A model generated the notes under the pieces. It made no database searches, was not told the origin of the DNA, and saw only the letters and a list, made by a program, of their open reading frames with translations. Position numbers and translations under genes: made by a program. Below, piece after piece: positions 3-10,194 of a DNA stretch of 10,194 nt. The stretch lies in NCBI GenBank assembly GCA_027063755.1, contig JAMORD010000061.1, positions 1 to 10,194 on the forward strand, in the 5' to 3' direction. Numbering within the stretch: position 1 is the stretch's first letter; each line of letters opens with the position of its first letter. The stretch comes from a bacterium (lineage in GTDB: Bacteria > Coprothermobacterota > Coprothermobacteria > Coprothermobacterales > JAADFF01).

Positions 3-293
3 AAAGAGCTGCAGGAAATGGCATATTATCTAGACTTTTTTCTCTTTATTCATGTTTCATGGATAAAAACCCATTATAAAGAAGCATATACGAACATTTG
101 GCATATGCAATGGAAAAATGAGGAAGTGCATTGCTGTAAAAACTATGTTAGTCGTGAAGAATGGTTGAATTGTATTGAATTAGCACATTCTAAGGTATTA
201 AAGGAAATAATTTCTATATATGGGGAATTACCTTCTTATGTTTCAAATATGCTTGCATGGATGGTAATTTACAAGATATGCTCGAACTTGTAG
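3..293 (+). CDS. 3' end of an unknown A+T-rich gene (partial)
   Basis: The frame is open from the first complete codon of the window to a TAG at 291-293, so this is probably the C-terminal part of a gene that starts to the left. The ATG at 18 lacks a properly spaced ribosome binding site: AGGA lies only about 2 nt before it. The visible 96 residues are rich in aromatic residues (YYLDFFLF, IWHMQW) and include a Cys pair (HCCKNY). I do not recognise a family. Base composition is A+T-rich like the operon at 1514-6688 and unlike the guaA fragment that follows within about 20 nt. I infer that it is the tail of an accessory (cargo) gene. It could also be a short complete gene starting at 18. Confidence 0.55.
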   Translation, partial: KELQEMAYYLDFFLFIHVSWIKTHYKEAYTNIWHMQWKNEEVHCCKNYVSREEWLNCIELAHSKVLKEIISIYGELPSYVSNMLAWMVIYKICSNL

Positions 294-314: not shown

Positions 315-521
315 GTATATATAGGTGATGAGCGCACATATGAAAACGCTGTAGTGCTGAGGGCTGTTGTCTCCACCGACGGCATGACAGCCGACTGGGC
401 AAGGCTACCATATGACTTCCTTGACCATGTAGCCCGCAGAATAGTAGGCGAGGTAAGGGGCATAAACAGGGGGGCATATGATATCACATCAAAGCCACCG
501 GGGACCATAGAGTGGGAGTGA
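315..521 (+). pseudogene. guaA: GMP synthase C-terminal remnant (guaA 3' end)
   Basis: The reading frame from 315 to the TGA at 519-521 encodes the dimerisation-domain end of glutamine-hydrolysing GMP synthase, the enzyme that turns XMP into GMP. Recognisable blocks are [43 protein letters not shown] and the terminal [14 protein letters not shown]. There is no start codon or upstream domain: a TGA in frame at 312-314 closes the frame and unrelated A+T-rich sequence lies beyond. The usual RVVYDI appears here as RGAYDI, possibly early decay. The fragment keeps its own terminator at 539-565. It is a 3' remnant left when foreign DNA joined the gene. An intact guaA would be expected further left, outside this window. 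Confidence 0.85.
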
Positions 522-538
522 GGTGCTTTTAAAGCTTG

Positions 539-624: not shown

Positions 625-1446
625 TTGCGTGTACCTATTGTTAAAACACCTACAATGTATCTTGATGACCTTGGCGTGTGGGTGAAACTGGAAAACCTCC
701 AGTATACAGGTAGCATAAAGGTGCGTCCTGCTTACTTTATATTGGAAGATGCCATGAGAAAAGGGATACTGAAGAAGGGAGATACCTTTGTAGAGGCTTC
801 TTCTGGCAACACGGCCATTGCCATGGCACACCTTGCCCCTATACTTGGGCTGAAGTTTAAGGTGGTGCTCCCCACAGATGCGTCCCCAGAGAGAAAAAAG
901 ATACTACGCTATCTTGGTGCCGATGTGATAGAAGTTGAAAGGGACAAGGTAATAGATACAGTAAGGCATATGGCAGAAGAAGGGGGCTATTTCTACACAG
1001 CCCAGCACTACACACCTATAAACGGTCTTGCCCACGAGCTGACAACGGGCCCTGAAGCCCTTGCCGACCTTCCCGATGTGCCCGACTGCATAGCCCTTGG
1101 AGTGGGGACCGGTGGGACCATATCGGGACTTGCCCATTTCTTCAGAAAGCTGAAACCTGATATCTATGTAGTTGGTATCAGACCAAAGGAGGGCACGGTG
1201 ATAGAAGGCCTTAGCAGAAACTACCTACCTGCATATGACAAAGATGCTGTGGATACAGAGATAGAGATTGCCCCTGAGGAGGTGTGGGAGTTTCACGGCT
1301 ACCTTGCCAAGAAACATGGACTATTTCTTGGCTATTCGGCAGCTGCTAACATATTAATAGCCCATAGGCTGAAGACAGAGAGAAGGTGCGACATTGTCTT
1401 TACCGTAGCCCCTGACGGCGGAGATAGGTATATAAGTAGGTTGTAG
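625..1446 (+). CDS. Cysteine synthase-like PLP enzyme (CysK/CysM family)
   Basis: A cytosolic fold-type II PLP enzyme, most likely making cysteine from an activated serine and sulfide. Numbered from the TTG start it has 273 residues, slightly short for a family that is usually about 300. Motifs: GSIKVR with the PLP-binding lysine at K32 (relatives usually have K-D-R), ASSGNT at 58-63 with N62 contacting the cofactor ring, the phosphate loop GTGGTISG at 161-168, GYSAA near 236-240, and PDGGDRYIS at 263-271 near the end. I chose TTG 625 because GGAGG (612-616) sits 8 nt upstream. An earlier in-frame start at 523 would run through the guaA terminator. The last 15 codons recur, diverged, at 6725-6772. 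The related beta-cystathionine or threonine synthase-type activities cannot be excluded. Confidence 0.85.
   Translation: MRVPIVKTPTMYLDDLGVWVKLENLQYTGSIKVRPAYFILEDAMRKGILKKGDTFVEASSGNTAIAMAHLAPILGLKFKVVLPTDASPERKKILRYLGADVIEVERDKVIDTVRHMAEEGGYFYTAQHYTPINGLAHELTTGPEALADLPDVPDCIALGVGTGGTISGLAHFFRKLKPDIYVVGIRPKEGTVIEGLSRNYLPAYDKDAVDTEIEIAPEEVWEFHGYLAKKHGLFLGYSAAANILIAHRLKTERRCDIVFTVAPDGGDRYISRL
1399..1446 (+). repeat. Left copy of the cysteine synthase 3'-end repeat
   Basis: These 48 bases, the last 15 codons plus stop of the cysteine synthase-like gene, align without gaps to 6725-6772. There are 9 mismatches, nearly all synonymous, and 14 of 15 residues are identical. The pair brackets the A+T-rich operon like left and right junctions of an inserted element. 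Confidence 0.85.
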
Positions 1447-1469
1447 ATAAAAATTGGATTATTATGTAG

Positions 1470-1475
1470 TATAAT
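1470..1475 (+). promoter_or_regulatory. Candidate -10 box for the deaminase operon
   Basis: A perfect TATAAT sits in the 67-nt gap before the deaminase gene, about 38 nt upstream of its GTG. I find no good -35 hexamer at 16-18 nt, so this is either a weak or activator-dependent promoter or a chance match in A+T-rich DNA. Confidence 0.35.
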
Positions 1476-1513
1476 GTAAATGATTTTATTAAAACTTGTT
1501 GGAGGCGTATGTA

Positions 1514-3898
1514 GTGGATTGGAGACAACTTGTTGAACCTATGGTCAGCGTATTAAGATCTGCTCGTTGTGCAGGCACATACATAATTTCCCGATCTATT
1601 TATTACTTTTTAAAGAAATGCTATGTTGATGTCATCTCTTCTCAGCTTATGTATCATTCTGCCTTTGCAACACAGGCAGTTAGTTCTATTGATGATATTT
1701 GTGATGATTTAGGAGAACCGTCCAAAAGAGATAGTCTTGTTAGGTGTTTTTTGTGTTCACTAGATAAATTAGTTGGTTATGTTATAGATGAATCTGGAAA
1801 TGTTATAGATCCTTATGTGTATTGGCGTATATCCCTTATGGTGAATCCTTATTTGCTATGGAGTTATTGGGCCTTAAAAAAAGGTTTATCTTGTAAGATA
1901 GATGCTTTGGATGATTTCCTTATACCTCTTAGAAGGTCTATTCAGCTTGACTCTCCTATTGATAGGCATGTTCATTTTGAATCCTCTTTGTATCCTGATG
2001 ATTTGATGAGTTTTCTTCTAAGTAATGAGGGAATTTTATGGTATTCGAATGTGAAGAGAAAGATGGAGAAAAATCGATCTAGAAATAGCGTTAAACCAGA
2101 TAGGTTTGTTCCTATAGTACCAGCAGATAAGAGAATTGTAAGTGTTGAAAAGTTGTGGGATGAATTTCCGCATTATACACTTACGCGTTATGGAAAAAGA
2201 CTTTGGCAAAACATGATTGTAAGTACCTGGGAGATGTTTGTTTCCTTATCTGGGAATATTCTTCTTCTAGGCAGAAAGCCTTCTTCCATGGATATTGCTA
2301 TATTCCTTTCTGGTAATTTTACAAGTCGCCCCTTTGTTATATGTAAGGATTTTCCGACACTAACACGATGTCTTTTACAGGTTGTATGGAATGAGTGGAA
2401 TGACAACCGAAAAAGGATTTTGCTGTCCGACTATGCTGTGTTTGCTTTGATCCTTTCTAATATTTTGTGGGCATCATTTGGTGATACTAGAGTTGAAGGA
2501 TTGAAAATATTTGCGGAAGGTATATATAGTCATCCTCTTAAGGATATATCAAAGGGAATAAGAAAGCAACTAGTAAAAAGGTATTTGAAAGGAAAAACTG
2601 TTACTCATAGTAGTTCTAAGGTTATTTATTGGTACGAGAGAAGTATATTGAGAAGAATGGGAACCAGCAATGCGACAGAATTAAGAATTTCTCTTCTAGA
2701 TAACCATTTTGATGGCGGAAAACTTGAAAATACACTTGGTGTGATTCAAAGAGATTTGCAAGAAATAGAAGATAAAAAGAAAATAGATGTTGTTCTGCAT
2801 TATATAAAGTATATTAGGAACGAAAAGGAGAGAAGCGATCTAATATATAACCTTTTTAGTGGAAGAGTTCATAAATATGTAAAGAAGTGGGTTAATGAAA
2901 CAGAGTCTACATTCCTTTATTTAATTAATAATGTCGGTAAAGATGAGATTAGAGTTATTGCAGGAATTGATGCTGCTTCTGATGAGATGTGGACACCTGT
3001 ATGGTTGCTGGCGCCTTTTTATAGGTTTTGGTATGTTGGTGTTTTATTATACGCGAGTAAGTTAAAACTTGATTTTAGAAGAATGACCTTTCATGCTGGC
3101 GAAGATTTTCTTGATATTGTTAGTGGTATTCGCCGTATGTTTGATGTTCAGATGATGATAGATGAGTTTGGTACAGGTATTAAAGGTATTGGCCATGGTA
3201 TAGCCTTTGGTGTTGATCCTTTCCATATGGGTTTAGGAACTTCCGTTATACCGTTTTTTGATTATTTTATGAATATTTGGTTCCTTACGTACCTTTATGA
3301 AAGTTATTCTATGCCAGATGGTTATTCCATGGAGTTTAAAGGGGTTATAAGAAAAGAGATGAAAAATCTTACAAGTAAGATAGGGATGCCAGACTTATCT
3401 TTGGAGGATTGGATGATGATGTATCCGCTGTTGTTTAAAGTACCGGCACTTTTTATGGGAGAAATATTCAATCATGGTTTGGTTAAGAGAATTTGGTATA
3501 CATCCAATGGTCTTGAGCAATTATGTGATAGTGGGAAAAATGTTTCTAGTCTTATTAAAGTTATGCGTGCTTTGACATCTGAAGAGAAGAATAACAAGGC
3601 GAAAATACTAGTATCACCAATATTTCCTCCTGAGGTGCTTTCTGTTAGTAAACAAGAAGAAATTGTTAGAATGCTTTCTGACTTGATAAAGAAAGGTATT
3701 AATAGAAAAAAAATAACACCTGAGATTTGTGTTACCTCTAATATGCTTATCAGGGATATTAAGGATCCTTTTATCCATCCATGGGCTTCTCACTATGCAG
3801 AAAATGGGGAGTATAGTGTGGGAACAGATAATCCATTGTTTACCTTATCTATTCCCGAACTTGAACTTTATTTCTTACATAGAAAAAGGAGGGGATAG
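1514..3898 (+). CDS. rdrB: RADAR adenosine deaminase RdrB
   Basis: This 794-residue protein carries a full adenosine deaminase active site spread over a very long chain. Numbered from the GTG start: H152-V-H154 (metal ligands), GID at 484-486, H527-A-G-E530 (metal ligand and catalytic Glu), GIGH561G, and GTD772NP near the C-terminus (metal-ligand Asp). Ordinary adenosine deaminases have about 350 residues; here roughly 330 residues separate HxH from GID, and about 210 separate GHG from TDNP. That size and layout match RdrB, the RADAR effector that deaminates adenosine nucleotides or RNA to inosine during phage infection. GTG 1514 is chosen because GGAGG (1501-1505) lies 8 nt upstream. The stop is 1 nt before the ATPase start, so the two are co-translated. 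The second Asp of the usual TDDP motif is Asn. Catalysis is inferred from motifs, not tested. Confidence 0.85.
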   Translation: MDWRQLVEPMVSVLRSARCAGTYIISRSIYYFLKKCYVDVISSQLMYHSAFATQAVSSIDDICDDLGEPSKRDSLVRCFLCSLDKLVGYVIDESGNVIDPYVYWRISLMVNPYLLWSYWALKKGLSCKIDALDDFLIPLRRSIQLDSPIDRHVHFESSLYPDDLMSFLLSNEGILWYSNVKRKMEKNRSRNSVKPDRFVPIVPADKRIVSVEKLWDEFPHYTLTRYGKRLWQNMIVSTWEMFVSLSGNILLLGRKPSSMDIAIFLSGNFTSRPFVICKDFPTLTRCLLQVVWNEWNDNRKRILLSDYAVFALILSNILWASFGDTRVEGLKIFAEGIYSHPLKDISKGIRKQLVKRYLKGKTVTHSSSKVIYWYERSILRRMGTSNATELRISLLDNHFDGGKLENTLGVIQRDLQEIEDKKKIDVVLHYIKYIRNEKERSDLIYNLFSGRVHKYVKKWVNETESTFLYLINNVGKDEIRVIAGIDAASDEMWTPVWLLAPFYRFWYVGVLLYASKLKLDFRRMTFHAGEDFLDIVSGIRRMFDVQMMIDEFGTGIKGIGHGIAFGVDPFHMGLGTSVIPFFDYFMNIWFLTYLYESYSMPDGYSMEFKGVIRKEMKNLTSKIGMPDLSLEDWMMMYPLLFKVPALFMGEIFNHGLVKRIWYTSNGLEQLCDSGKNVSSLIKVMRALTSEEKNNKAKILVSPIFPPEVLSVSKQEEIVRMLSDLIKKGINRKKITPEICVTSNMLIRDIKDPFIHPWASHYAENGEYSVGTDNPLFTLSIPELELYFLHRKRRG

Positions 3899-3899
3899 C

Positions 3900-5015
3900 A
3901 TGCCATATACGGTTATTGATTTAACACCAGAAGACTTGTATACCAATGTGTTCGGTGTTAGCTACGGAGATAAAAATGACGGTAAGAGAAAAGATATTTT
4001 TATTGTTCAGCAGTATGTTGACTTTTTAGACGAAGTAGAACATCTTGTATCTCAAAGTAACGATGGGAAAATGAAGGGAATATTTCTTGATGGACAAAGG
4101 GGAAGTGGTAAAAGCACAATTGTATTTAATCTTTTGCGAGATGAGGATTGGTTAAATAAACATAGTTTTCTTCCTTTACCAGAACCTATAGATTTACCTT
4201 CTACAAGTATGTCGATTCTTGTATGGTTTCTTAATTTTCTCTTGTTTCTAAGCGGAGATATTGATGGAGGAGTAGATGTTTGTGAGAAATCGGATATTTC
4301 GGATTTGATGGGATTAGCTAAACAGATAGAAGTTATAGTTAATAGCGACAATGTAGACTATTGGACTCAAATTAACGTAGAAATTTTTCAGATAAGATCA
4401 AAGATAGCGAGTGTTGCTAAAAGAGTTTTGGAAAAGAAGAAAAAGAAGTATTTTCTTATTGTGGTTGATGATCTGGATATGGCGCAAAGCCAATTTATTG
4501 CTCGTTTCTTTAGGGATGTTTATTTTTTCTTAGGGGATGTGCCTCTGGTTGTGATAGGAGTGGGGGATCTTTATCATCTATTGAAAATTTTGTGTTTGTA
4601 TGAGGTTAACGAGTTGAAAGTAAATGGTTCATGTTGGGAGGGAGATGAAGAGAAATATATTATTGATGAGCGTATAAGAGCTAGATTTGAAAAGGTCTTT
4701 GGTTCTGTTTATAATATTGTTCCAATATCTAAGGTGGGTTTCTTTGTTAGGTATCCTGTTTCTAACAAAATTTCTTCGCAGACGGCTTCCAAACCGTATA
4801 AAGATGTTTCTTTGTCTACTTATATAAATAACTTTGTTGCTAATGGTTATCTATTCAGTTCATTAGTTGCATGGTTTTTGCTTCAGAATGTTTCTCTTAG
4901 GCAACTTGTAATGATCCTTACAGAAATAGAGATTGCAAGAAGAGAAGGGAAAAAAATTATGTTTCATGAGCTTTTTAAAATATTTGTCCGTAAGTTATAT
5001 GTGGATTTGATATAA
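3900..5015 (+). CDS. rdrA: RADAR-type P-loop ATPase, RdrA N-terminal half
   Basis: A 371-residue cytosolic ATPase. Walker A is G65-QRGSGKST (65-73) after the strand KGIFLD. Walker B is FLIVVDDLD (185-193). Downstream come DERIRARFEKVF (257-268), possibly holding the arginine finger, and VSLRQLVMIL (331-340), resembling a sensor-2 helix. The DDLD Walker B is typical of the KAP/AAA-like group to which RdrA belongs. RdrA usually has about 900 residues with the ATPase near its N-terminus; this chain stops after the ATPase core. ATG 3900 has AGGAGG (3887-3892) 7 nt upstream, overlapping the end of rdrB. Its position directly behind the deaminase makes a partner role likely, but assignment to RdrA rests on context plus the ATPase motifs. 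A longer in-frame start at 3729 would lie inside rdrB and is rejected. Confidence 0.75.
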   Translation: MPYTVIDLTPEDLYTNVFGVSYGDKNDGKRKDIFIVQQYVDFLDEVEHLVSQSNDGKMKGIFLDGQRGSGKSTIVFNLLRDEDWLNKHSFLPLPEPIDLPSTSMSILVWFLNFLLFLSGDIDGGVDVCEKSDISDLMGLAKQIEVIVNSDNVDYWTQINVEIFQIRSKIASVAKRVLEKKKKKYFLIVVDDLDMAQSQFIARFFRDVYFFLGDVPLVVIGVGDLYHLLKILCLYEVNELKVNGSCWEGDEEKYIIDERIRARFEKVFGSVYNIVPISKVGFFVRYPVSNKISSQTASKPYKDVSLSTYINNFVANGYLFSSLVAWFLLQNVSLRQLVMILTEIEIARREGKKIMFHELFKIFVRKLYVDLI

Positions 5016-5038
5016 GAATTTGATAGGAGGCGAAAACT

Positions 5039-6688
5039 ATGGAGAAACACAGAGTGTATCTTGCTTTTCTTCGGAATCTTCTAGATAAGTTGAGAAGGGT
5101 ATCTGCTAATAGAAATGTAAAAGCCTCTAATTTTTGGGATTTTATTAAAGAAATAGATGGTTCCCATAAGAATACATTCATTTTGCAGCAGTACTACCGT
5201 GAACTTATTTTTGAGAGAGAAGAAGATACAGGTCTGTATAAGATCTACCCATTTCCAGTTATGTTTAATCGAATTTTAGATCTTATAGTTATGACAAGCT
5301 TGTTTGCAAGAGATGAAGTTTATGATTATCGAGATCTTATTGATGTTCTCCGTGATTTTATAGACGAGTTTGAAAAATATCTGGATATGTATCCGGAAAT
5401 GACCTGTAGAGAAGGGTGTGAATGGAATAGGAAAGAAAAAAGAAAACGGGAATCTGAGGAAATTTCATTGAGTGATTCAGAGGATACGTGTGATCATAGA
5501 TGCAAAGATGATGAATATGTGAATGATACTGATTGTGATGTTTCGGCTGGGATGAATCCTTTTTCACATACTCTCTCCTATTATGATTTGATAGTTTCTA
5601 CTCTGACAGATAGAATTAATGAGAATGAATTTGAGATTTTAGAGAAAATGGAAGAGGAAGATTTAGAGGATGAACCTCAGGATAGTGGTAACAAAAAGTA
5701 TCAGGAGAATAAATTATCTACTATAAAATCATTTTATTATGAACTAATGCGATTTGGTATTTTTCCCCAAAGTGCATATACTGCAGGTCTAGATAAAGTT
5801 GCTATAACTGTTGATTTGCCGTTAGGACGTGTTAAAAAGGCGATTGTTGTTTCTTTGACTTTGGCAAAATGGCTTGCTGAGTTTGTTGTAGACGAGGAAT
5901 TTGTACTAAATATAGATGGATGTTGCTTTGATGTTAGTGAAACCATATTTTCCGAAACATTGGTACCAATTTTAAATGATAAAAGACGACTTCAAGAAAT
6001 TAGAGATTATGTTATAGCTCAAGGTCTTACTTCAAGGGCAAGAAACATAAACGTTATTGGTTTTGAGATAGTTCCCTTGTTGGCAACTGGTATCTTCTAT
6101 TTACCTTTTATTAATTGTATTTGCCCTTCATGTAGTATCAATGTTAAACTGAATCAACCTACTGCTTTGAGATTTGCCAATATCTATCCTAAGATGATAG
6201 GAACTATTGTATCAAGCGTTAAATGTGATTGTTTTAAAGGTTGGTATGAATGGGAGAAATTTGTATGGTGTTATCAGGAATGTAAGTATCTATTCGAATT
6301 TAGAGAAATTGTGGATAAAAAGAATAGACAGGTAAGTAATTATAGGGGTAAGAAAAAGTCAAAGGGACAAAATACCGGTGTTAAACCGAGAACCCCAGTA
6401 TATAAAAATATTGTTAAAGCATTTGATAAAATCTTTGCTAATAAATCTGATAAGGCTTATAAGTATTGGAAGAAAGAGTTATCGTTTCTTTTTAATCATA
6501 AGCATCTTTCTGATGATGATATAGAATCAATAAGCAGCGGGGCAAAGTTAGTAGCGGTAGAGCTTTATAAATGGCTTGAACATAAGAAAGACAGACAAGG
6601 AAATGACATTTATAATTATGGAAAAAAGACTCAGAGAATTCGGGATTTATGTGTTTGGTTGTATAGGAATAATGAACAGGGTCAGTAA
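5039..6688 (+). CDS. Third operon protein, probable detached RdrA C-terminal half
   Basis: A 549-residue soluble protein that I do not recognise by a signature motif. AGGAGG (5025-5030) lies 8 nt before ATG 5039, and 23 nt separate it from the ATPase stop, so it is translated independently in the same operon. Residues 1-120 look helical. Residues 123-215 form a charged, acidic low-complexity stretch with scattered Cys. Residues 225-430 look like a globular domain with a Cys cluster, C360-I-C-P-S-C365 and C396-D-C398, plus C411 and C415, that could bind zinc. Residues 430-450 are basic. With the 371-residue ATPase it sums to 920, close to one full RdrA, so I infer that it is the C-terminal part of RdrA as a separate chain. 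It is not like the known RADAR accessory membrane proteins, since no transmembrane segments are evident. It could instead be a new third component. Confidence 0.6.
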   Translation: MEKHRVYLAFLRNLLDKLRRVSANRNVKASNFWDFIKEIDGSHKNTFILQQYYRELIFEREEDTGLYKIYPFPVMFNRILDLIVMTSLFARDEVYDYRDLIDVLRDFIDEFEKYLDMYPEMTCREGCEWNRKEKRKRESEEISLSDSEDTCDHRCKDDEYVNDTDCDVSAGMNPFSHTLSYYDLIVSTLTDRINENEFEILEKMEEEDLEDEPQDSGNKKYQENKLSTIKSFYYELMRFGIFPQSAYTAGLDKVAITVDLPLGRVKKAIVVSLTLAKWLAEFVVDEEFVLNIDGCCFDVSETIFSETLVPILNDKRRLQEIRDYVIAQGLTSRARNINVIGFEIVPLLATGIFYLPFINCICPSCSINVKLNQPTALRFANIYPKMIGTIVSSVKCDCFKGWYEWEKFVWCYQECKYLFEFREIVDKKNRQVSNYRGKKKSKGQNTGVKPRTPVYKNIVKAFDKIFANKSDKAYKYWKKELSFLFNHKHLSDDDIESISSGAKLVAVELYKWLEHKKDRQGNDIYNYGKKTQRIRDLCVWLYRNNEQGQ

Positions 6689-6698
6689 CTGCTAAGGC

Positions 6699-6720
6699 GA
6701 GGGGAATTTATTTTCCCCTC
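6699..6720 (+). terminator. Hairpin at the end of the RADAR-like operon
   Basis: GAGGGGAA (6699-6706) pairs perfectly with TTCCCCTC (6713-6720) across the loop TTTATT, 11 nt after the last stop codon. The T tract behind it is poor, since the cysteine synthase remnant starts at 6725, so termination may be weak. Confidence 0.6.
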
Positions 6721-6724
6721 TTAC

Positions 6725-6772
6725 TTCACCGTAGCTCCCGACGGCGGCGACAGGTATATAAGCAAGCTGTAA
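6725..6772 (+). pseudogene. Second copy of cysteine synthase 3' end
   Basis: This encodes FTVAPDGGDRYISKL followed by TAA, matching the last 15 residues of the intact gene (FTVAPDGGDRYISRL). The nine base differences are synonymous, apart from one Arg/Lys change and TAG versus TAA in the stop codon. It therefore diverged while still coding and is not a fresh duplication. It has no start and homology ends abruptly on the left. Its stop lies 2 nt from the stop of the convergent GT2 pseudogene, the spacing expected of native neighbours. This suggests that it is the original resident gene end, cut off by the cassette. Confidence 0.85.
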
Positions 6773-6774
6773 AT

Positions 6775-8014
6775 TTAAAATCTTGGAGTTTTATCCCATT
6801 TAATGGGTGCACTTTTCTTCGGGCTTTCCGTTGTTGTATCCAAGCATTGGCCAATATTACTAGCCATGCTTGGGCATGTGTAAAATATATAATGGTTGCT
6901 ATGATGATATTTTCGGCGTTAGCTCACCTTCTAAAAATGCCGTCACAATAAGTTGTGTTGCATATATCCACCACGATTCAAACCATAGGGTTAATAGGGG
7001 TAGATGAGTGCCTGCTGAGAATATACCCAAAAGACCCTATACAAACCATAAGTCTGATAGTATGACAAATGTGAATGAAAAACACATAATAAACAGATAT
7101 TAGTTGTATGTCGTTCCAGAGTTTTCTACGACTGCGATACTCCTTTGTCGCTATGATCTTCTGCACAAGGTATAGGTTGTCTATCATCCATCGTGTGCGT
7201 TGTTTGAACCATACGGAAAATTTTTCTGATTCTTGTTTCCACGATTGAGAACGGGGTTCTATGGCTATGAGATAGTCACGGGCTGTGAGGGTAAGACTCT
7301 GTTCGGCATCTTTGGCAAGGGCGTATTTGTCCCAGCCTCCTATTTCATCGAGCATATGCCTTTTTATCATTATGTTTGTGCCAGGGAAGCTACCTAACTT
7401 AAGGAGTTTCCACCTGCCAGATTGCATAGTTATCTAATATAGCAAGCTTTCTAACCCGATCATGGTTGTTAGTATCGTCTTGTACATGTTGTGAGACCGA
7501 TAGTATCCGGCAGCCCCTCCATATTTTTCGTTTTCCATGAGTTTGTAGACAAGGAGATTTACGGCATCGGGGTTAGGTCTATTATCGGCATCGTAAACGG
7601 CGATAACTTCTTCGTAGCTAATGTGCCTTCCGTAGTTGAGAATACGGGATTTTCCTTTAGGTTCTCCCGGTGGCACTTTCACATGATGTATATTGACAAA
7701 TATGCCTGCCCAGAATTCGGCTATGTCACCTGTTCTGTCAGTGCTATTGTCGTTGAGTGGGTATATGTTCATAGGGCCTTCATATTCAAGAGATGCTATT
7801 GCATCAAGTGTTTCAAATAAGACAACTTCTTCATTGGGGGGCAGGGATAAAAACGGCTACACTATGGTATGTTAGGCTCTTGCTCCATGGTTTCTACTTT
7901 GTATATGATGCCCAATATACCAAGAATAGTGTAATAAAACATGATGCCCCAGAAGGCTACCACGATAAAGTAAAACAGCCAAGATAGTGCTTTAATAAAT
8001 AGCATTGCTGTCAT
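6775..8014 (-). pseudogene. Decayed family 2 glycosyltransferase (processive, membrane-bound type)
   Basis: Read leftwards from ATG 8014-8012 (start MTAMLFIKAL, then a long hydrophobic segment) to TAA 6777-6775 (ending KWDKTPRF). The piecewise product is about 413 residues, normal for bacterial GT2 synthases of this type. Landmarks: VAVFIPA...NEE, NDNSTDRTGD, YDADNRPNPDA (DxD), SFPGTN, GGWD, KDAEQSL and QRTRW, then C-terminal membrane helices. Such enzymes polymerise a polysaccharide from nucleotide sugars at the inner membrane. Lesions: frameshifts near 7855-7867, at the run of six G at 7836-7841, near 7060-7075, near 6895-6915 and near 6795-6808; in-frame TAG at 7434-7436 and 7037-7039. The start overlaps the upstream gene's stop as ATGA, a trace of translational coupling. 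The family call is firm; the polymer made is unknown. Confidence 0.85.
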
Positions 8015-8688
8015 TGTGTGTGATCCCTTATAATTTTCTCATTTATCTCCTGATTTTCTGTTGCCGATATGGTATTATATATTTCCATATACTTTCTCAG
8101 TTCTTCTCCCAATATTCTGGGATGTTTTCCCAGCTTCTGGAGTATTCTATTTATCACTATATTGGCTTTATCTGTATCTGTTCCCTGTAGCATGATGACA
8201 AGGGTGTTATTTCCAGTCTTCCCTACTATGTTGTATCCCCTTCTGATGCTATCGAGTATGGTATTACCTATAATTCTTAAAAGGGTCTCGGGCTCTTTGC
8301 CCAGAGGGGTTTTTATCTTTATGAGATTTTCTTCCTCTGTGTATATCAGGGCTACTATGAGCCACCACGACAGGAATATGGTGGCAAAGAGCAGTTGATG
8401 GGTAATTAGTTGAACCTGATTGACACGCTAGTGTAGCATGGCATAGGTCACCACAAATAGCGATAGTCCAAATATGATGGTGCTCGCAATAATGATACAA
8501 CTGAGAATAGAGTAGGTATACATGATAATAAATGTTAGCAACGCAACGACAAGCAGTGGGAGAAATTCTACAGCTGATAAAATATGACCTCCTATATATG
8601 TTGGTATGATTCCTATTATCGATAACACACCTATGAGGTATGTTTTTACCTACTTTATGCGATATGCGATTTGATACCAATTGTTCAA
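8011..8688 (-). pseudogene. Decayed membrane protein of the polysaccharide cluster
   Basis: One frame runs leftwards from about TTG 8688 to TGA 8013-8011, broken only by TAG at 8650-8652 and 8428-8430. Reading through both gives about 225 residues. The first half holds several hydrophobic segments (for example FLPLLVVALLTFII, IIIASTIIFGLSLF and LLFATIFLSWWLIVALIY). The soluble second half includes TPLGKEPETLL, NTLVIMLQGTDTDKAN and GKHPRILGEELRKYMEIY. I do not recognise the family. Its stop overlaps the GT2 start by ATGA, and GH5 lies upstream on the same strand, so it was probably an accessory membrane subunit of polymer synthesis or export. The start is uncertain: no convincing ribosome binding site precedes 8688. 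Confidence 0.6.
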
Positions 8689-8725
8689 CTTACGTTTTTC
8701 TACCTAATATTTGCTTTATATAAGT

Positions 8726-8754
8726 ATTATATCTCAAGATAAGAACTGTTCCAA
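8726..8754 (-). promoter_or_regulatory. Sigma70-like promoter ahead of the membrane protein and GT2
   Basis: On the minus strand TTGGAA (8754-8749), a 17-bp spacer and a perfect TATAAT (8731-8726) lie in the gap between the GH5 pseudogene end and the membrane protein pseudogene. Transcription would start about 30 nt before the proposed start codon. Confidence 0.5.
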
Positions 8755-8785
8755 TGATATATTGCTATAAAAATTTGTTTTAATT

Positions 8786-9772
8786 TTATAATATCTTTTC
8801 TTTGGGCTGGCACGGATATAGCACGGCCATGAGCACAAGATGCCTATCGCTTCTCCACTGGTAATACTCTATATCGTAGAGTTGGCCATCGGCATTGATG
8901 ACAAAGGGTATGCGGGCATACAGCAGAGAGCAGGACATGTATGAGGCAAAGACCATCTGCGGGCTATGGTATATGTGTCTCCTTTGTTATAGTTGCCGGG
9001 CATCCATGCTCCAACCCATGTATGCAAGCCCGTTTTCTTCTTCCACTGCAATGCCGACTTCATATAAGAGATTTTTCGTACTCTGTGCCTGTGGTCCACT
9101 GCTTGTTTGTGCCTATCTTGGGGTTGGGGCCTGCTGTGTAGAAGTGCCACTCTCCCATGATATAGTTGTCACCTGGTGGAATATACAGCTCATCAAGATA
9201 GTACGGATTCGAGGTATAACGGGATCGTATGAATATGTACGGTATGGGTCTACTTTTCTTATGATTGGTATCACCTGTTTGTAAAACTCGTTTAGGAGAT
9301 CTGGGTAGTTATTGAGTTTTTTACCCACCTCAATAATCATGTCGTAGGACAGCAGGTAGGGATAATCTTTAAACTCATGAGCTATCTTATCCCAAAATGC
9401 CACTGAATGTTTTAGTGTATGCTGGGAAGGATGCTTGTGAAGTCTTTGGTGGCATATGCAATGAAGCCCCACCTTAAAGCAGTCGTCTACCACACGGTGC
9501 AGGAGCGCTATAGTCTCTGTGCTGTCGCCTGCCACACGTATGCGGACATGCTGAAAACCTATATTTTTAAAGTCAAGGATCACTGTGGCCGTGTAGCCCT
9601 GTCTCCACTTGTTAAATGTTACCCAGTTTGCATCTATGCCAATACCAAGCATGCGCTAATACTCTGCTGGTGATATAGGGCTATGAATAGGATTCAGAGC
9701 CTTGAGTGCAGGTATGTTGCCCAGCAGTATAGCCAGTATAGATATGATGACTGCCATCTGTTTATGTTTCAT
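8786..9772 (-). pseudogene. Decayed secreted GH5-like glycoside hydrolase (cellulase type)
   Basis: Read leftwards from ATG 9772-9770, with AAGGT 7 nt upstream, to TAA 8788-8786. The piecewise product is about 329 residues. It begins with a signal peptide (MKHKQMAV, then a hydrophobic core to about residue 20). Landmarks: MLGIGIDANW, NIGFQHVRIRV, IAHEFKDYPYLLSYDMIIEVG (probable acid/base Glu), GEWHFYTAGPNP (probable nucleophile Glu), HTWVGAWMPGNYNKGD and PFVINADGQLYDIEYYQW near the end. GH5 enzymes cleave beta-linked glucans; beside a GT2 synthase such an enzyme would trim or edit the polymer outside the membrane. Lesions: in-frame TAG 9656-9658 and frameshifts near 9205-9215, 9058-9070 and 8957-8970. 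Family assignment is good, substrate unknown. Confidence 0.8.
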
Positions 9773-9871
9773 GTCTATTACCTTCATGGGCCACATATTT
9801 TCCAATCCCTTTTTATACACATAAACGCCTTTCATAAAGATATACAATAAAAGGTGAAAGGGGTGGTTGCC

Positions 9872-10194
9872 GTGGAGTACGATCTGACAAAGCCGATAGA
9901 GATAGCAGAGGATGTTTTCTGGGTAGGTTATGTGGTACCAGATGACCCATTTCAGTGTCATGTGTACCTAATTAAGAATGGAAAAGAGAGCATTCTCATA
10001 GACCCTGGTAGCAAGATTGTGTTGCCCGTTGTGCTTGAGAAGATTGTGTCCCTTGTGCCCCTGAGAGATATCAAATATATTATCTTTCACCATCAAGACC
10101 CAGATATTACCGGCTCATTTGAGATTCTTGAGCAGCTATTTCCGGAAGGAGAGCGTTATGTTATAACCCACTGGCGTAGTGCCACCCTGCTAAA
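9872..10194 (+). CDS. MBL-fold protein, ODP-like (5' part only)
   Basis: The visible 107 residues start at GTG 9872, preceded by AAAGGGG (9857-9863) at 8 nt, and run off the right edge. After VFWVGYVVPDDPFQCHVYLI and the strand ILIDPGS (41-47) comes H73-HQDPDITGS82, the metal-binding motif of the metallo-beta-lactamase-fold group related to the oxygen-binding diiron domain of flavodiiron proteins. These domains bind two iron atoms and react with or sense oxygen or nitric oxide; some are fused to flavodoxin or signalling domains. Which fusion applies here is not visible. The gene is divergent from the GH5 pseudogene, with about 100 nt between them, and its frame is intact, unlike the decayed cluster beside it. 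Confidence 0.75.
   Translation, partial: MEYDLTKPIEIAEDVFWVGYVVPDDPFQCHVYLIKNGKESILIDPGSKIVLPVVLEKIVSLVPLRDIKYIIFHHQDPDITGSFEILEQLFPEGERYVITHWRSATLL

What the first reader, a model, noticed from the sequence alone, without database searches (positions are those of the whole stretch)
6725..6772. Cassette sits inside a duplicated 3' end of a cysteine synthase gene
The last 48 bases of the intact gene (1399-1446) recur at 6725-6772 with nine differences, almost all synonymous. A recent target duplication would be near identical, so the two ends diverged as functional genes in separate lineages. The incoming DNA apparently brought its own gene end, or the whole gene, so the host enzyme stayed intact while the old end was stranded. 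This resembles islands that enter at a gene's 3' end and rebuild it.
Basis: partly seen in the sequence, partly recalled or inferred. Interest (0 to 1): 0.7.

Follow-up and report, generated by a model that had tools for sequence, protein, structure and literature searches.

The report
Defence cassette beside duplicated gene end
A 5.3-kb block that looks like a distant, rearranged RADAR anti-phage system sits between an intact cysteine-synthase-like gene and a stranded 48-base copy of that gene's old end, and a sister species lacking the block shows what the site looked like before.

Summary
Window 6725-6772 matches the last 48 bases of the cysteine-synthase-like (PALP) gene at 39/48 positions; shuffled sequence never exceeded 28. 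Eight of nine differences are synonymous. Its PALP stop lies 2 bp from the convergent GT2 gene, and the sequence across that joint matches 6724-8324 at 91%. The stub is therefore the pre-insertion PALP end, still joined to GT2. The intact PALP carries a different allele of that end. Whether the whole gene or only its end was imported is not settled: PALP divergence from G001 shows no break at 1399.

The inserted block (1447-6724) has three AT-rich genes: an RdrB-like deaminase with its active site intact, a 371-aa RdrA-like ATPase, and a 549-aa protein of unknown family. It is RADAR-like, with reversed order and no detectable RdrA C-terminal half. No integrase was found. A second truncated gene end, of guaA (320-523), and a decayed third PALP on contig C62 suggest repeated block exchange here. 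The best explanation is homology-assisted import from a relative, with a non-homologous right junction; an att-type insertion is the main rival.

The parts
3..293 (+). end of an ORF of unknown family (ORF X), AT-rich, directly before the guaA fragment
   Evidence: Open frame, no Pfam, PADLOC, NCBIfam or PHROGs match, GC 31%
320..523 (+). 5'-truncated 3' end of guaA (GMP synthase), followed by PALP
   Evidence: 92% identical to the intact guaA end on G000:C62; GMP_synt_C 2e-24; 67 open codons
625..1446 (+). intact cysteine-synthase-like (PALP family) gene; coding start approximate
   Evidence: Pfam PALP 1.2e-54; 87% aa identity to G001 over residues 101-273
1399..1446 (+). 3' end of the intact PALP gene (the functional copy of the repeat)
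   Evidence: Repeat D1; 9/48 differences from the stub, 7/48 from G001
1447..6724 (+). inserted block, absent from congener G001
   Evidence: G001:C91 aligns to 923-1448 and to 6724 onward with nothing between; GC 34% versus 48% in PALP
1496..3898 (+). RdrB-like adenosine-deaminase-fold protein, 800 aa
   Evidence: PADLOC RdrB 4e-6; NCBIfam RdrB 3e-7; PDB 8fnv/8fnw E 0.002; H158, H160, HAGED 533-537, GH 566-567, SN 748-749, D778 shared with six RADAR RdrBs
3900..5015 (+). P-loop ATPase, 371 aa, RdrA-like N-terminal domain, no detectable RdrA C-terminal half
   Evidence: Pfam AAA_16 7e-5; hhalign against six RdrAs: probability 92%, E 7.5e-7 over residues 60-224
5039..6688 (+). third cassette protein, 549 aa, unknown family
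   Evidence: No meaningful family, PDB or RdrA-profile match
6701..6717 (+). terminator-like hairpin ending the cassette, just before the stub
   Evidence: not above the number expected by chance, so suggestive only
6725..6772 (+). stranded old 3' end of PALP (16 codons including stop)
   Evidence: Same 16-codon reading as G001; 4/48 differences, all third positions
6773..8040 (-). GT2 glycosyltransferase gene, frameshifted here, intact (415 aa) in G001; its stop lies 2 bp after the PALP stub
   Evidence: 92% nt identity to G001 with several frame-breaking indels; Glycos_transf_2

Best explanation
Shown: congener G001 has PALP directly followed, 2 bp after its stop, by the convergent GT2 gene, and the window keeps that same joint at 6725-6775. 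A 5.3-kb block with RADAR-like genes now lies before it. The last 48 bases of the old PALP stayed attached to GT2, while the gene before the block ends in a different allele. Inferred: linear DNA from a related species, carrying its own PALP (perhaps with the guaA end before it) followed by the cassette, recombined by homology on the PALP/guaA side and by non-homologous or micro-homologous joining on the right, inside the last codons of the resident PALP. The enzyme was never interrupted, because a complete PALP came with, or was rebuilt by, the incoming DNA. The guaA fragment before PALP and a decayed further PALP on contig C62 suggest this happened more than once here. The cassette probably defends against phage by altering the purine nucleotide pool, as RADAR does; this is inferred from the intact deaminase active site.
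For: Empty site and continuity of the stub with GT2 in G001. The two ends within one genome differ at 7/16 third positions, at least as much as either differs from the other species (5/16 and 4/16), so they have separate histories. All four stub-to-G001 differences are at third positions, so the stub was coding until recently. PALP divergence from G001 is uniform to its stop and greater than in the GT2 flank (third positions 0.63 versus 0.84, P = 5e-7). No recombinase among the predicted proteins scanned. The second gene-end fragment, 204 bp of guaA, is longer than the 12-54 bp repeats reported for integrase elements at gene ends, and C62 carries guaA, a 678-aa gene and a decayed PALP in that order. 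One-sided homologous import is a documented process (PMC3240628).
Against: PALP third-position identity to G001 (0.64) equals that of another gene in the right flank (0.63, metallo-beta-lactamase), so PALP need not be foreign. The donor has not been found. Only one congener was available, and its contig starts inside PALP. Linkage of C62 with C61 is inferred, not assembled. The genome is a fragmented assembly (251 contigs, 88% complete), so strain mixing cannot be excluded.
Confidence: 0.6

Rival explanations
1. Site-specific integration: a small element with an att site mimicking the PALP 3' end recombined at the resident PALP end, rebuilt the gene and displaced the old end, as tyrosine-integrase elements do. 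The integrase acted in trans or was lost.
For: The repeat is exactly the 3' end of the gene (48 bp); ICEs of streptococci have direct repeats of 12-54 bp that in some target genes are the exact gene end, guaA among the targets (PMC4701971). The identical topology is expected.
Against: No integrase among the predicted proteins scanned. Repeats are 81% identical with at most 11 bp in a row. No break in divergence at 1399, though power is low. The guaA fragment is 204 bp, and its truncation point is not at the known guaA att core GAGTGGGA near the stop (PMC9376610).
Confidence: 0.22
2. Tandem duplication of the guaA-PALP segment within or between congeners (merodiploid formation), followed by loss of one copy of each gene. 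The stub and the guaA fragment are relics of deleted copies, and the cassette came in separately.
For: G000 has three PALP ends and two guaA ends; guaA is intact with a decayed PALP on C62, while PALP is intact with a truncated guaA on C61. Transformation can create merodiploids (PMC3784515).
Against: The copies are too different (81% and 92%) for a recent self-duplication. The stub shows no coding damage in its 16 codons, unlike the decayed PALP on C62.
Confidence: 0.13
3. Assembly or binning artefact: the contig joins two strains.
For: The genome is fragmented, and guaA and PALP occur in more than one version.
Against: The two copies share at most 11 bp in a row, so no k-mer would be expected to bridge them. 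The cassette ORFs are intact. The right flank is colinear with G001.
Confidence: 0.05

Closest known systems
RADAR anti-phage system (rdrA-rdrB; PMC9994260)
   Same: RdrB-like protein with all deaminase motif residues and similar length (800 aa); an adjacent ATPase resembling the RdrA AAA+ domain
   Different: Gene order reversed (deaminase first), ATPase 371 aa instead of about 900, no detectable C-terminal half, an additional 549-aa protein, far below the curated RdrB and RdrA cut-offs
Integrative elements inserted at gene 3' ends (for example ICEs and GIsul2 at guaA; PMC4701971, PMC9376610)
   Same: Target gene stays intact; a short copy of its exact 3' end lies at the far side of the insert
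   Different: No integrase found; repeats 81% identical; the guaA fragment is 204 bp
Homology-facilitated illegitimate recombination (PMC3240628)
   Same: Explains homologous exchange on one side and a non-homologous junction on the other
   Different: Known from laboratory transformation and conjugation; the donor here has not been found

Membership tests
RADAR | RdrB with an intact adenosine-deaminase active site | tested here: met
   H158, H160, H533, E536, H567, D778 aligned with six RADAR RdrBs
RADAR | RdrB reaches the curated NCBIfam cut-off (800 bits) | tested here: not met
   29.2 bits, E 3e-7
RADAR | RdrA AAA+ domain with Walker motifs beside RdrB | tested here: met
   GQRGSGKST and VVDDLD; hhalign probability 92%, E 7.5e-7
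RADAR | RdrA of about 900 aa with a C-terminal helical lobe | tested here: not met
   ATPase is 371 aa; the 549-aa neighbour shows no match to RdrA; a distant C-terminal homologue cannot be excluded
RADAR | rdrA precedes rdrB | tested here: not met
   Deaminase gene comes first here; the ATPase gene comes first in all six comparison loci
RADAR | Assembly of RdrA and RdrB, ATP-to-ITP deamination, phage defence | not testable with these tools
   Needs biochemistry
Integrase-borne island at a gene 3' end | Site-specific recombinase in the element | tested here: not met
   No recombinase in Pfam, NCBIfam or PHROGs scans of the predicted proteins
Integrase-borne island at a gene 3' end | Direct repeat of the gene's exact 3' end, near-identical in its core | tested here: inconclusive
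   Exact 3' end, 48 bp, but 81% identity and at most 11 bp in a row
Homology-facilitated import | Empty site in a relative, with a foreign allele on one side and a non-homologous junction on the other | tested here: inconclusive
   Empty site and abrupt right junction shown; foreign origin of PALP likely but not proven

The most novel reading that the evidence does not exclude
The locus is an integrase-free exchange hotspot at guaA-PALP, where successive defence and peptide-type cassettes arrive each with its own housekeeping gene or gene end as anchor. The newest cassette is a compact, reversed-order RADAR type with a truncated RdrA and a new third component.
Probability: 0.3. Interest if true: 0.6.

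Novelty: new variant of a known kind. Interest (0 to 1): 0.42.

Why it matters
It gives a readable before-and-after case of how a defence cassette can settle behind a housekeeping gene without breaking it and without an integrase of its own. The cassette also widens what a RADAR-like system may look like: the ATPase is less than half the usual size, and a third protein may replace the missing part.

Tried and rejected
Target-site duplication on insertion: rejected, because the copies differ at 9/48 and the stub is continuous with, and nearer to, the G001 arrangement. Chance match: rejected by shuffles. An old insertion with later decay of the stub: unlikely, since all four differences from G001 are at third positions. 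Divergence of PALP from G001 as proof of foreign origin: not conclusive, because another flank gene is equally divergent. The 549-aa protein as the split-off RdrA C-terminal half: no profile match. Structure models of the 371- and 549-aa proteins without alignments were too poor to search (mean pLDDT 38 and 40). Scans of viral contigs and genome contigs found no close relative of the cassette or of PALP. Whole-genome searches of 386 relatives gave only three other full-length RdrB-like proteins. No RNA family or tRNA lies in the window.

Full report
What was checked. The window is contig C61 of an incomplete genome assembly (1.5 Mb, 251 contigs, 88% complete, 1.7% contamination). One member of the same genus is held, G001, and the other order-level relatives are 0.8-1.4 Mb genomes.

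The repeat is real. The last 48 bases of the cysteine-synthase-like gene (1399-1446) recur at 6725-6772 with 39 identities. The best match elsewhere in the window is 25/48, and 300 shuffles never exceeded 28. Eight of nine differences are synonymous, and seven of nine are at third positions. The gene belongs to the PALP family; cysteine synthase is a reasonable but untested name.

The empty site exists. G001 contig C91 aligns to window 923-1448 and to 6724 onward, with nothing like 1447-6723 between. There the PALP stop lies 2 bp from the stop of a convergent, intact 415-aa GT2 gene. The 48 bases in G001 differ from the stub at four third-codon positions and from the intact gene's end at seven positions. 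The stub plus GT2 is therefore the old arrangement, and the cassette's right boundary lies just before the last 16 codons of the resident gene. The 48 bases by themselves are too few for a significant ranking (Fisher P = 0.46); the unbroken alignment through the stub into GT2 carries the argument.

What was replaced is less certain. Third-position identity with G001 is 0.63 for PALP 923-1398, 0.69 for its last 16 codons, 0.75 for the stub, 0.84 for GT2 and 0.90 for the GGDEF gene, but 0.63 for the metallo-beta-lactamase gene further right and 0.70-0.77 for three other genes of G001 contig C91 whose G000 counterparts lie on contig C81. PALP is thus clearly more diverged than the adjoining flank (P = 5e-7) and somewhat more than the three background genes (P = 0.007), with no step at 1399. 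A whole-gene import fits this best. A native PALP with only a new end is not excluded, because loci here differ widely in divergence.

The neighbourhood shows further traces of the same kind. Window 320-523 is the 3' end of guaA, cut off at its 5' side and placed before PALP. The intact guaA lies on contig C62 (92% identical over this stretch), followed by a 678-aa gene on the other strand, a decayed PALP with a large internal deletion, a short cysteine-containing ORF and the start of a radical-SAM gene. The left end of C62 matches the end of a G001 contig (C24), and the right part of C61 matches G001 C91, so the two G000 contigs plausibly belong to one locus. Their linkage is inferred. Three PALP ends and two guaA ends in one genome indicate repeated import or duplication here.

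The cassette. The first gene encodes an 800-aa protein that matches RdrB in PADLOC (4e-6), NCBIfam (3e-7) and the solved structures 8fnv/8fnw (0.002). Aligned with six RADAR RdrBs it keeps the two N-terminal histidines, HAGED, GH, SN and the late aspartate, so a working deaminase is likely. The second gene encodes a 371-aa P-loop ATPase that aligns with the RdrA AAA+ domain (hhalign probability 92%, E 7.5e-7). The third, 549 aa, has no recognisable family. In all six comparison loci a 640- to 1030-aa RdrA gene precedes rdrB; here the order is reversed and the ATPase is short. It should be called RADAR-like, not RADAR. In RADAR, RdrB turns ATP into ITP and inosine nucleotides accumulate on infection (PMC9994260); the same is inferred here.

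Mechanism. Homology on the PALP/guaA side with a non-homologous joint inside the last codons of the resident PALP explains the intact gene, the foreign-looking allele, the stub and the absence of an integrase. Such one-sided events are documented (PMC3240628). Integrase elements can produce the same picture, with direct repeats of 12-54 bp that may be exact gene ends (PMC4701971), so this rival keeps a sizeable share. It is disfavoured by the lack of a recombinase, the 81% identity of the repeats and the 204-bp guaA fragment.

Noticed in passing
window 6773-9760: GT2, GGDEF and GH5 genes are intact in G001 but carry frameshifts and deletions here (for example 141 bp lost from the GGDEF gene), so the right flank is decaying while the cassette genes are intact.
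   Followed up: partly
window 320-523: A 5'-truncated guaA end precedes PALP, while the intact guaA lies on contig C62.
   Followed up: yes
L006 (G000:C62) 8864-9207: A decayed additional PALP copy with a large internal deletion (about residues 71-217).
   Followed up: partly
L006 (G000:C62) 9757-10186: A short cysteine-containing ORF followed by the start of a radical-SAM gene, possibly a ribosomal-peptide (RiPP) cluster.
   Followed up: no
L006 (G000:C62) 6827-8863: A 678-aa probable membrane protein without NCBIfam or PHROGs matches, lying between guaA and the decayed PALP.
   Followed up: no
L039 (G001:C91) right end and L062 (G001:C24) end: Both G001 contigs end at this locus, and a full guaA was not found in G001; the region is probably an assembly gap there.
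   Followed up: partly
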